In this document: piece by piece, positions 26,005 through 43,276 of the stretch
Position numbering within the stretch: the first letter of the stretch is position 1
Layout of the letters: each line of letters begins with the position of its first letter
From: Thunnus maccoyii
Taxonomy: Eukaryota; Chordata; Actinopteri; Scombriformes; Scombridae
Assembly: GCF_910596095.1 (NCBI RefSeq)
Contig: NC_056540.1
Span: 27,686,001 to 27,750,000, forward strand
Length of the DNA: 64,000 nt
Direction: 5' to 3'
The notes under the pieces: model-generated
Seen by the model: only the letters and a program-made list of their open reading frames with translations
Told to the model about the DNA's origin: nothing
Database searches by the model: none
Translations under genes and position numbers: made by a program

Positions 26005-26240
26005 TTTCCCATTCAAGTAGCTTTTAAACTTTCCATCAGCTGCCTCAAATGATGAATCAAAAGATCTCATTTTTCATTTTTTTAAAAAAAAGCTTGTTGA
26101 CTACAAAGATGGGAACCTTTCTATAGTAGTTATAATATAAAAACATATATTCCATGTGCTTTTAACTCTTCAATTTCAAACTTCAACAAAATCTCAGACA
26201 CTAATAATAACAAGGGATCATCCTGACATCACTGTAGTGG

Positions 26241-26246
26241 TTTATT
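26241..26246 (-). terminator. Putative polyadenylation signal, bbs7 copy A
   Basis: AATAAA on the minus strand about 110 bases after the stop codon, in a block conserved with copy B (35345-35350). Confidence 0.55.
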
Positions 26247-26355
26247 AATCACCGCACTTGTTTTTAAATGCTATTAAGAAACACTGCTAACCATCATAAA
26301 ACAAAACTGTTGTATTTACAATACAAAAATATCCCAAATAAAGACAGAGATGACA

Positions 26356-29300
26356 TTATGCCTCACTGAAAAAATCTAACAGGGAATTCAAATCATAATT
26401 GTCCAGTATCTCCAGCAGTGAGGACACCTTGGTTTTCACGTTCTGGCCTTTGAACTTGAATTTGTCGATGAAGAGGTCTGTGATCATGCCTATAGGAAGA
26501 AAAAAATATCAATTACCACTAGCCAACAAGCTCTACTTCATGATTCAAGACAAATAAATATACAGTAATAAGTAATCCTGTTTTACAATTTTAGAAATTA
26601 TTAAACAATGAAAAACAAATTTGGCAAAAAAATACAATGATATTTTCCTCAGTGCTGATTTTTCAAAATGCAACTGAATGCCTACTGAGTCAGTCAGTTA
26701 AAAGTGTCTCTGGATGAGTCAGTGAGAACAATGGCTGTTAAAAGTGAAAAAATACCACACCATAAAGCCTCTCAAGGTGTGCCGGCTGCTTCTTGTACTC
26801 CTCCAGGAGATTAGTGGACTCATCCAAGATGTTGCGATACTCTGGGATGAGAAAATCTGCATTCCCCTCGTGAACCTGAAGCTCCTACAAATTGGAGAGG
26901 AAGTAGAGGCAAGTAAGTGAAGAACTTAAGATTTTCTTTGAACCAAAGGTGGATTTATGGACAGACAGTATAATGTGAGAGTGATGATTTAGCTCCAGGG
27001 ATGTTTTTTTTCTGTATGACATATCTAACCAACACTTACTTTAAGTGCATCAATAAGCTGAACTTTTCTAGCCAGCAACAACTGGTACTCCAGTTTTGGA
27101 TGGATCATCTTAAGAGTGTGACTCACAGAGTCATCACTGATATCTGGAAGATTGATACACAAACAAAGAGGCAAGTGGAGCAAGATTTAATTTGCCACAG
27201 ATCATTCATTGAGAAATCCTATAAGCAGGCATTAAACTAGAATAATAACAAATTTACCCTACCATGTAAAATGTTCAGATGTATTTTCCGTTTGGTAGCT
27301 TCCTTCGAAAGAACATCACTCAGTATGGAAATGGTAGAGATGTTGTCGGACTTGAAGTGACCCTCCCCTTTGCTAAAAAAAAAAAGTAGATTTCAACATC
27401 AATTCCAATTTCATAACCACTTATCAGCTACCTGCTAACCTCTTTCATTCACTTATATGCAATCCTTGATCTGTACTACTGTGTGCCCACATTTACCAGT
27501 AGGTGGCTTCAAGCTGCGTGCCGAGGAAAGTGTTGTGGAAATAGAAAGTGATGTTCTCTCTTGCTGGTGTTTTCTCTGGCACCTCTGGCAAACAGAAAAC
27601 CACCCAAGAGTGAATCTCTGCAAAACTGAACTGTCCAACCAGACTGAGCCTGTTCATGGGCCTGTGTGACAGACAGAGAGACAGAATCAGAGGGACAAAT
27701 GTCCATTATGCCTCTAAATCCAGCCTGAATCCACATTTCAAGTAATCTAATAATCAGAATGAATTACATTTTTATTTCACCTCATTCATTCTGAACAAAT
27801 ATAAGATGTTGGCAGCAATACAGAAGTCTGACACCAACATTTCAGTGGGATTGGCATTAATCTGATTTTATGCCTCAAAACAATCCAAACCTTTGCATTT
27901 GAGTTTTTGCAAAACACAAGAATAACATTGAAAAACAGCTTCAAAGTAGGAATACATTGCCATTTCAAATCTCAGTCTAAATTATTATCATTTAATGTAT
28001 CTTTACCTGTCTTGGTCTATGCTGTGTGTCCGCTGGTGAAGAGATAAAGGTTTAATCTGGTACTGGCGGACATGGCAGGTCTTGGGTTGCAGTCTGGGGG
28101 TAACATAAGCCTGCAGGGTGCCATACTGTCCCTCAATGGATCTCACCTACAGCAATTTTGGAGGACACACGTTATTCTTAGTAAAGCGTTGATGTAATAA
28201 GTACAAGACACAGCTGAGAACAGTCTATGACATCATGACAACTATAATCCCACAAAGGAAGTCCACTATAGTATTATGTCTTTTTTAGACAGTTAGTTAG
28301 ACACATTGTATAGGGTTAAAGGAATAACACTTTGACTTAACGTAGTAACAGAAATGCCACAATAGAGTTTTGATGCAAGTGTTACCTTGAGCTCAAGTCT
28401 GGTAGTGTTGGCCTGACATCTGTATGTGAACAGGATGAAGTTCTGTTGGAAAAAGAGTCAGTAAGAGTCAATAGAGCATTAGACAGGTTGTGATTAAGTT
28501 GGTATTTATGTTCTGTGTCAACAGTCAACACAGCTCACCTCTGAGTCACATTCACTGAAGCTGACAACAGCTGAGTTCTTATCCACATCCAGCAAGTCTA
28601 TGGGAACGTCGCTCTGCACAGCAGAAGAGGATCTTTAAATAACATTTATATCTGGGATTAACAGCATGCCTTCTTCAAGTCTTGCAGTACAAGTTCTACT
28701 GTCAGCAGAGGATGTAACCACAGGGATTTAGTGCTGAGTGTACCTGGAGCAGCAGGTTGTCGATGGCAGTCTGCACCTCTAGGGTGAGGCTGTAGCTGGC
28801 ATCGTCCTGACAGAGGGTGAACTTGTCATTGATGCTGAAGACAGCTGTACTAGACTGAGAGGTCTGCTGGTACTCTTCACAGCCCTGCAGGACTTCGATC
28901 TGCAGCTGCTCCAACTCCGCCCTGGAGGAGAATAATATACTGACCTGAAGAACAGCTTTGTTTTGAAACAATAGTTGAACCATTAGTGCACAAGAATATT
29001 CTCTATAATGAGAAAAAAACTGGTACCTGAGTGATTCCACTTTGGACTGGGTCTCTTCACTCATCGTGACCTCGTCTCCGGGGCCCGCTTCAGCCTTCTG
29101 GAGCTCAGTGGTCAAACCAGTCACCCATCCTGGAAGAGGTAATGACAGTAATTCAGAGTATGCTATACATGTCACATCTCTTTCTACAGGCGTTTGACAG
29201 GCAGCACAGACACCTTTTCTTCACTGAGGTAAAACTGAAGACACAGAACTCTATGTACACTGTTTGGTGAAATATTAATAATTTAACCTGTATAAGTGGC

Positions 29301-41500: not shown

Positions 41501-42472
41501 TGCAGTCACAGTAGTGGTTGTAGATGTAACTTGCACACACAAAAAGGTCAGCGCCTGAGACATGCCTGGAAAAGAGATCACACAGTTTGACACAAGCCAG
41601 CATTTTAGTTTTCGGATTTATCTGAACTATAAAGTCATCAAATTATAAAATGTTCAGTTGACTTTTGATCAAAATGAAGAGAAGTGGTTCCTACATGGCG
41701 TTAATGTTCTCAGTGAGGTTGGCTTCAAAGGTGAGAAACTGTTTGCCTTTCTTGGTAAATCCTCGGACCTGAGAACCAGAACAGACAAAGATCTTCTCCT
41801 GTGGAGTTCCTGCAGCTCCTCCAAGGTCCATTCTGGCTATTTTCTGTCCTGGAAGTGTTTTAAACACAGGCTGCAACACAAAGTCAAGTTTCTTGATATT
41901 AGAAACATATTTGTGTACCATTGGCTGTTCAACAATGGAAGAAACATCTCAACCCAAAGAAGATACTCACCACTGCTTCGCCCTTCTTCATTCCAAAACA
42001 TGTAACTATACCATCATGATCAGCAATAGCAACCTGAAACAAAGCAATACCAGTCAACTGCCATAAGGCTGTAATATCAAACAGCTATGTAATGAACAAA
42101 AAATACTCAAAGTAAGAATGTTACACAATATAATCAGTTTAGATTAGTGTGTAAACTGTGGTGTCGCTTTGACAGATTAACAATACCTTCTGGGTTGCCT
42201 TTTTTCCAAGTGCTGGGAGCAGCCTCATAGTTTTCTGGGATGTTACACCAACCTGAGAGGAAAGAGCAGATGGAAAAATATTAATTATAACAAAGCCTGA
42301 CAGCTTTACGTGAGAGAAATACCCTGAATGTACATTATATAGTAAGCACTAGTATGATACCGTTGTAAATAGTTAAAATTCAATAATCGAAATAAAAGAA
42401 CAAGCGACCAGCGACTGTACTTGGTATTAACGTTACCTGCATATAGTCAACTCGATTTAGATGGATCTCCAT
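35530..42472 (-). CDS. bbs7: BBSome subunit Bbs7, conserved copy B
   Basis: The full-length homologue of human BBS7 (715 aa), here 712 residues from 19 exons: 42437-42472, 42187-42252, 41971-42033, 41695-41870, 41379-41565, 41208-41280, 40784-40891, 40375-40505, 39181-39265, 38823-38925, 38525-38717, 38325-38399, 38163-38228, 37765-37904, 37354-37518, 36423-36532, 36200-36303, 35921-36044, 35530-35663 (2139 nt, all phases closing). It keeps residues I recall from human that copy A lost: [47 protein letters not shown] before [22 protein letters not shown]. Exon 13 has a tandem NAGNAG acceptor (38231 or 38228). Domain layout is as for copy A. This is the likely ancestral-function copy. Confidence 0.95.
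36696..37288. mobile_element. hAT-type MITE in bbs7-B with perfect 8-bp target duplication
   Basis: The ends are 'tagagatgcactgac' and, reverse-complemented, 'tagagatgcaccgatc'. Both flanks are 'ctgataat' (36688-36695 and 37289-37296), a perfect 8-bp duplication as made by hAT transposases. Copy A has the unoccupied site 'ctgctaac' within otherwise matching intron sequence (about 27431-27440). Confidence 0.9.
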
Positions 42473-42913
42473 CTTCTTTCTCCAGTGGATGTCTTATCTT
42501 AGTAGGAAAAGTATGGTGCAAATCTTCCAGGTATGTTGTCCGTCTATGAAACTGTACCGATAAGAAGTGGCAGTCCACCGTAGACAGTCGTCATTCACAA
42601 CTTGCAGGCAAAATTTCCATAAGAATGAGTAAACGCTGTTAGTGGGAAAGATAGACTTGGATTATCTAAGCAAGAAGATTAGCTAGACGTGCTAACGTTA
42701 GCTAGCAAGCTAATTGGCTAACACGATTTATTCGCACGCCAGCTGGCTGCTTTGAAGAAGAGAAAAGAATCACTAAAAAAATCTACTGAGCGAAATAAAA
42801 ACACACCAAGCAAACTACTGTCAGCGCATGTTACCAAAAACTCCCTCTTACACACGAACATTAGGCTCAAACAGTAAATACAACACTTGAAACCCCGATG
42901 AAACGCAGCTACC

Positions 42914-42928
42914 GTTGCCAGTGGCAAC
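42914..42928. promoter_or_regulatory. X-box (RFX site) of bbs7 copy B
   Basis: Same 15-base motif as in copy A, GTTGCCAGTGGCAAC. It is followed directly by a second, imperfect X-box-like segment GTTGCATCCCGTAAC at 42929-42943 that copy A lacks. It lies about 440 bases before the start codon, farther than in A because of extra 5' sequence. Confidence 0.8.
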
Positions 42929-43276
42929 GTTGCATCCCGTAACAAGCTGTGACGCCACTGGTGGAGACTGAATGAGAGAAATTGAAGCTGCATCCTGATT
43001 GGTTGAATCGCTTAAGTTTTAATAGAAGACTATAAATACAACGTTGATGCATTCATAGATGTGGCAATATTAACATTAGACCTGTTTTCATGAATTTTAA
43101 ATTGGTCTTTTAATTTTTTTGAAAGCAATGAAATGCATATAATCTAAAAAAGAATATTTACATCTCAATGTTTAAAAAAAAAATAAATACATTTAATCAC
43201 AGATTAGACCTCAGTGTTTGTTCTCTGGTGTGTGTTTTTATCATTACATTATTTTTTTGTTTGTTTTTGGATACAT

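What the first reader, a model, noticed from the sequence alone, without database searches (positions are those of the whole stretch)
26005..43276. Intact head-to-tail tandem duplication of the whole bbs7 gene
Two collinear units of about 8.2-8.3 kb each hold all 19 bbs7 coding exons, introns, 3' end and promoter X-box. Both reading frames close without stop or frameshift (704 and 712 residues). I know BBS7 only as a single-copy gene with one subunit per BBSome, so a fish with two intact copies could assemble alternative BBSomes.
Basis: partly seen in the sequence, partly recalled or inferred. Interest (0 to 1): 0.88.

Follow-up and report, generated by a model that had tools for sequence, protein, structure and literature searches.

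The report
Tuna tandem bbs7 gene pair
A tuna-like genome carries two complete, neighbouring copies of the cilium gene bbs7; one is the ordinary gene and the other has collected about ten times as many protein changes while staying readable, so it is a real gene duplication of an ordinary kind with an unusual subject.

Summary
The tandem duplication is real. Two units (26003-34325 and 35069-43275, minus strand, between ccna2 and tmem33) each hold all 19 bbs7 coding exons. Both frames are open, introns are GT-AG, and both keep an identical 15-base X-box. Two haplotypes are unlikely: aligned noncoding sequence differs by 7.5%, and a deposited yellowfin tuna (Thunnus albacares) protein has copy 1's deletions and 31 of its 32 derived substitutions. 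The window is tuna-like; its species is not identified.

The copies are not equivalent. Copy 2 is the conserved teleost BBS7. Copy 1 carries 32 of 35 polarised amino-acid changes, approximate branch omega 1.15 against 0.11, yet no frameshift where about 6.5 would be expected in one neutral copy. A deposited Scomber scombrus 'BBS7 protein-like' is also fast-evolving and shares three residues with copy 1 found in 0 of 124 other rows; this hints at a scombrid-wide duplication, but the tree does not decide.

Best reading: an asymmetrically evolving BBS7 paralogue under weak constraint. 'Alternative BBSomes' is possible but untested; slow pseudogenisation is not excluded. Expression was not testable. 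No held paper names bbs7 with Thunnus or mackerel.

The parts
35530..42472 (-). bbs7 copy 2 (canonical), 19 coding exons, 713 or 712 aa
   Evidence: Gene model; E=0 match to bovine BBS7 chain 6vbu_7 over query residues 1-712; BBS7 Pfam domains
26356..33725 (-). bbs7 copy 1 (fast-evolving), 19 coding exons, 704 aa
   Evidence: Gene model; 3 of 704 aa differ from Thunnus albacares P0040; BBS7 Pfam domains
26003..34325 (.). duplicated unit 1
   Evidence: Self BLAST
35069..43275 (.). duplicated unit 2
   Evidence: Self BLAST
34326..35068 (.). spacer between the units; only short chance-like matches to the outer flanks
34018..34032 (-). X-box-like palindrome GTTGCCACTGGCAAC upstream of copy 1
42914..42928 (-). 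X-box-like palindrome GTTGCCACTGGCAAC upstream of copy 2
31822..33685 (.). extra sequence in intron 1 of copy 1 (intron 1934 bp against 184 bp); the one ORF tried has no Pfam match
28386..28442 (-). copy 1 exon 13: 9 or 12 bp shorter than in copy 2, first AG of the tandem acceptor lost
   Evidence: acceptor moved to the CAG as explained under the observation check
28744..28921 (-). copy 1 exon 11: in-frame 15-bp deletion (residues 370-374 of copy 2)
22625..25212 (-). ccna2 (cyclin A2) exons, downstream neighbour
   Evidence: Cyclin_N matches in 2 of the 3 pieces tried; the name ccna2 is recalled from sequence and synteny
44439..47595 (-). tmem33 exons, upstream neighbour
   Evidence: TMEM33_Pom33 matches in 2 of the 3 pieces tried

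Best explanation
Shown: a real tandem duplication of the whole bbs7 gene with its promoter X-box in a tuna-like genome, with copy 1 also present as a deposited protein of Thunnus albacares. Copy 2 remains the canonical BBS7 subunit with few protein changes. Inferred: copy 1 is a still-coding BBS7-like paralogue, freed from most of the original constraint but kept in frame. It probably gives a BBS7-fold protein from its own X-box promoter that has diverged in the beta-propeller and in the ARL6-facing linker and BBS2-pairing helix, so it may be a weaker or specialised partner of BBS2 rather than a second equal subunit. Function of some kind for copy 1: about 0.6; slow pseudogenisation: about 0.3.
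For: Gene models and splice sites. Copy 2's residue is the commoner one in 41 of 45 differing columns among 120 listed relatives, P0040 included. 32 copy-1-derived against 3 copy-2-derived changes, 1 ambiguous, by 20 near orthologues; two-sided sign test p=4e-7, omega about 1.15 (CI 0.56-2.4) against 0.11 (0.02-0.39), with synonymous changes split equally by assumption. 0 frameshifts against 6.5 expected in one neutral copy, p=0.0016. Copy-1 changes hit sites at least 97% conserved in 12 of 32 cases, fewer than random (418 of 713 sites, p=0.019) but more than the 70 of 365 in 20 orthologues. Four BBS7 Pfam domains retained. P0040 differs by 3 of 704 aa.
Against: An omega near 1 is what a pseudogene shows (not different from neutral, p=0.87). 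Absence of stop codons alone is not significant (1.5 expected, p=0.22). Intron indel rates may overstate those of coding DNA. Polarisation of synonymous changes was not possible for want of outgroup DNA. No expression or protein data; the P0040 row lists no source lgn, the source of the short 2-3 kb contigs.
Confidence: 0.6

Rival explanations
1. Copy 1 is a pseudogene in the making that has by luck not yet acquired a stop or frameshift.
For: Branch omega about 1.15, not distinguishable from 1 (p=0.87); changes at sites nearly invariant in the listed relatives, e.g. 480, 588, 592 (119 of 120 each); in-frame deletions and loss of one AG.
Against: 0 frameshifts with 6.5 expected (p=0.0016); changes avoid the most conserved sites relative to random (p=0.019); all splice sites usable; a full-length protein is deposited for T. 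albacares.
Confidence: 0.3
2. Assembly artefact: two haplotypes of one locus placed in tandem.
For: I could not examine reads, and the window's assembly could not be searched (9 unanswered requests). I did not see whether T. albacares also has the canonical copy, since clusters show one representative only.
Against: 7.5% noncoding divergence (257 of 3438) with kb-scale indels, asymmetric protein evolution, and copy 1 as a deposited protein in T. albacares.
Confidence: 0.04
3. Tuna and mackerel second copies arose by independent duplications.
For: AU test does not reject copies 1 and 2 as sisters without the Scomber protein (p=0.464) nor Scomber with copy 2 (p=0.449). The Scomber protein is 86% identical to Sebastes BBS7 and 85% to T. 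albacares P0040. A rough clock gives 18-21 My, younger than crown scombrids (37.7 Ma, 95% 25.9-49.9, PMC3762723 passages).
Against: Three derived residues (L318, L592, H593) shared by Scomber and copy 1, in 0 of 124 other rows; best tree joins them, weakly (85/38).
Confidence: 0.35

Closest known systems
Teleost BBS7 (single BBSome subunit)
   Same: Copy 2: full length, domains, 96% identical to Sebastes umbrosus BBS7 (P0001)
   Different: A second, diverged copy lies beside it
Thunnus albacares 'Bardet-Biedl syndrome 7 protein isoform X1', 704 aa (P0040)
   Same: Copy 1 counterpart, 3 aa differences of 704
   Different: Named as plain BBS7, not as a paralogue, in the name shown
Scomber scombrus 'BBS7 protein-like', 713 aa (P0121)
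   Same: Fast-evolving second BBS7; shares L318, L592, H593 with copy 1
   Different: 85% identical to copy 1; different deletions; orthology not settled
Asymmetrically evolving tandem gene duplicates in general
   Same: One constrained and one relaxed copy
   Different: Subject is a core BBSome subunit, which I know (recalled) as single copy

Membership tests
BBS7 | Beta-propeller, GAE, platform and hairpin domains in order | tested here: met
   All four Pfam models far above cut-off in both copies
BBS7 | Full-length match to a solved BBSome BBS7 chain | tested here: met
   Tested for copy 2 only: residues 1-712, bovine 6vbu_7
BBS7 | Assembles into the BBSome with BBS2 | not testable with these tools
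   No interaction data
Functional tandem duplicate gene pair | Both coding frames and splice sites intact | tested here: met
Functional tandem duplicate gene pair | Purifying selection on both copies | tested here: inconclusive
   Copy 2 yes; copy 1 omega about 1.15 but frame kept
Functional tandem duplicate gene pair | Both copies expressed | not testable with these tools
   No RNA data
Processed pseudogene | Introns absent | tested here: not met
   All 18 introns present
Haplotypic duplication artefact | Copies differ only at allelic level | tested here: not met
   7.5% noncoding divergence and 45 differing protein columns
Haplotypic duplication artefact | Second copy lacking in long reads or at half depth | not testable with these tools
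   No reads; search of the window's assembly not answered in 9 requests

The most novel reading that the evidence does not exclude
A BBS7 duplication older than the tuna-mackerel split gave scombrid fishes a second, rapidly diverging BBS7 that replaces the canonical subunit in some cells, changing how the BBSome binds ARL6 or cargo.
Probability: 0.2. Interest if true: 0.7.

Novelty: new member of a known kind. Interest (0 to 1): 0.42.

Why it matters
BBSome subunits are, as far as I recall, nearly always single copy, and the complex is an octamer of eight different subunits (PMC7018513 passages). A natural second BBS7 kept in frame in tunas, and perhaps in mackerels, offers a way to see which BBS7 surfaces tolerate change and whether a BBSome variant exists. 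If it is only a decaying duplicate, it is ordinary.

Tried and rejected
Haplotype artefact: considered and set aside on divergence and on the T. albacares protein. Retrocopy: rejected, introns are present. Positive selection on copy 1: not claimed; the omega interval includes 1. A functional reading of the enrichment of copy-1 changes at residues 317-375 (ARL6 linker and pairing helix): 8 of 32, p=0.004 by length but 0.03 after allowing for site variability, so only a hint. Gene conversion of the 3' end: noncoding divergence is 8.9% in the 5' part and 5.5% in the 3' part (p=0.0002), and no copy-1 change lies in residues 594-713 (p=0.003); but intron 15 (14%) and the 3' flank (8.9%) do not fit, so it is plausible and not proved. 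Breakpoint repeats: only short chance-like matches. Transposon in intron 1: not identified. Literature searches: bbs7 with tandem duplication and fish (3 papers), with duplicat and teleost, with BBSome, gene duplication and paralog, with Thunnus, with mackerel; for the 11 rows, which overlap, I saw the listing and the start of the abstract only. A search for bbs7 with g63r gave 0, and I draw nothing from that site. Searches looked for tuna genomes, BBSome structures and scombrid dates. Passages of PMC9670116 gave no usable date. Structure prediction was not run, as it would not tell such variants apart.

Full report
Observation. A self-comparison of the window gives a chain of collinear direct matches from 26003-34325 to 35069-43275. 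The genes read on the minus strand. Rebuilding the exons gives 19 coding exons in each copy, every intron with a GT donor and a usable AG acceptor, and open frames of 704 aa (copy 1, next to ccna2) and 713 or 712 aa (copy 2, next to tmem33); the choice depends on a tandem acceptor at exon 13, of which copy 1 has lost the first AG (the 704-aa form is used from then on). Copy 2 matches bovine BBS7 of the solved BBSome over residues 1-712, and both copies carry the four BBS7 Pfam domains, copy 1 with slightly lower scores (beta-propeller 458 against 475.5 bits). The neighbours are supported by Cyclin_N and TMEM33 matches in 4 of the 9 pieces given to Pfam; the other 5 had no match. Both copies keep an identical 15-base X-box-like palindrome in an upstream region that differs by 14% where aligned (66 of 482). 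That an X-box marks ciliary genes is recalled knowledge.

Not two haplotypes. Aligned noncoding parts, flanks included, differ at 257 of 3438 positions (7.5%), with 23 indel events; introns alone, by the same kind of filter, at 166 of 2614 (6.4%). There are larger length differences too, among them about 1.75 kb in intron 1 and 0.7 kb in intron 15. A deposited protein of yellowfin tuna, P0040, 704 aa, differs from copy 1 at 3 of 704 residues and from copy 2 at 46 of 713 columns. It has both copy-1 deletions and 31 of 32 copy-1-derived substitutions. The window is thus a tuna or a near relative; the three differences show that P0040 is not the same sequence, but not that the species differs. 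P0040 stands for a cluster of 8 sequences that I could not open, and I did not see T. albacares' canonical copy.

Asymmetric evolution. Between the copies there are 23.5 synonymous and 38.5 nonsynonymous differences (dS 0.052, dN 0.024, ratio 0.45). Polarised with 20 near orthologues, 32 amino-acid changes fall on copy 1, 3 on copy 2 and 1 is ambiguous (sign test p=4e-7). With synonymous changes split evenly, an assumption, branch omega is about 1.15 (0.56-2.4) for copy 1 and 0.11 (0.02-0.39) for copy 2. Against plain neutrality of copy 1: 0 frameshifts where noncoding indel rates predict 6.5 (p=0.0016), although the absence of stops alone is not significant (p=0.22), and changes fall on the most conserved sites in 12 of 32 cases against 418 of 713 expected at random (p=0.019). 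Twenty control orthologues show 70 of 365; one control, P0019, contributes 20 of those 70, perhaps through a faulty gene model, and was not removed. So constraint on copy 1 is weak but seemingly not absent.

Where the changes lie. Of the 32 copy-1 changes, 17 are in the first 316 residues (beta-propeller), 8 in residues 317-375, 7 in 376-593 and none in 594-713 (positions; tests). The bovine linker 320-335, about 317-332 here by the alignment, contacts ARL6 in the active BBSome, and the following helix and GAE domain pair with BBS2 (PMC7018513, abstract and passages seen). Enrichment in 317-375 is modest once site variability is allowed for (p=0.03). The unchanged 3' end, with lower noncoding divergence on average (5.5% against 8.9%), may reflect gene conversion from copy 2 or kept constraint; intron 15 and the 3' flank, at 14% and 8.9%, speak against a clean conversion tract.

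Age. A Scomber scombrus 'BBS7 protein-like' (P0121) was not among the 120 rows listed for copy 2 and was listed for copy 1. It carries 78 lineage changes, 39 at the most conserved sites (a few are shared with both tuna copies), and shares L318, L592 and H593 with copy 1, residues seen in 0 of 124 other rows. The best tree, of 40 of the 128 rows, joins it to copy 1 (85/38) inside a scombrid group (95/97), but the AU test rejects neither alternative (p 0.464 and 0.449), and by overall identity it is no nearer to P0040 (85%) than to Sebastes BBS7 (86%). The search with P0121 as query listed 120 of 646 proteins; among the 124 other rows gathered in the three searches none bears these three residues, and the unlisted proteins were not seen. 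With 7.3e-9 per site per generation (passage of PMC9650269) and an assumed 3.5-year generation, noncoding divergence gives 18-21 My. Crown scombrids are dated to 37.7 Ma, 95% 25.9-49.9 (PMC3762723 passages), and another paper puts Euthynnus affinis' split from a common tuna ancestor at about 46.9 Mya, more than twice the TimeTree age (PMC8489456 passage). Longer generations or gene conversion could close the gap; so could independent duplications.

Verdict. This is a real tandem duplicate with one canonical and one loosely constrained copy, known so far from tuna and perhaps mackerel. I think copy 1 more likely than not still does something, but no tool here tests expression or assembly. Papers: bbs7 with Thunnus and bbs7 with mackerel each gave 0 in the held library; other collections were not searched.

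Noticed in passing
34326-35068: About 740 bp of spacer between the units has no counterpart at either outer flank, so the original junction may have been altered by insertion or deletion.
   Followed up: partly
31822-33685: About 1.75 kb of extra sequence in intron 1 of copy 1 with long, probably chance ORFs; one ORF tried without Pfam match, no long terminal repeats found.
   Followed up: partly
47815-48242 and 51193-51613: A dispersed direct repeat, 82.5% identical, perhaps a transposable element.
   Followed up: no
13676-14276: ORFs that look to me (recalled) like non-LTR reverse transcriptase remains; the one piece tried had no Pfam match.
   Followed up: partly
52318-52479 and 8056-8135: Microsatellites: about 40 units of ATCT and 16 units of TGTTA.
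   Followed up: no
P0121 (Scomber scombrus) against copy 1: Seven sites (7, 48, 56, 351, 352, 359, 480) changed in both Scomber's paralogue and copy 1, to different residues.
   Followed up: partly
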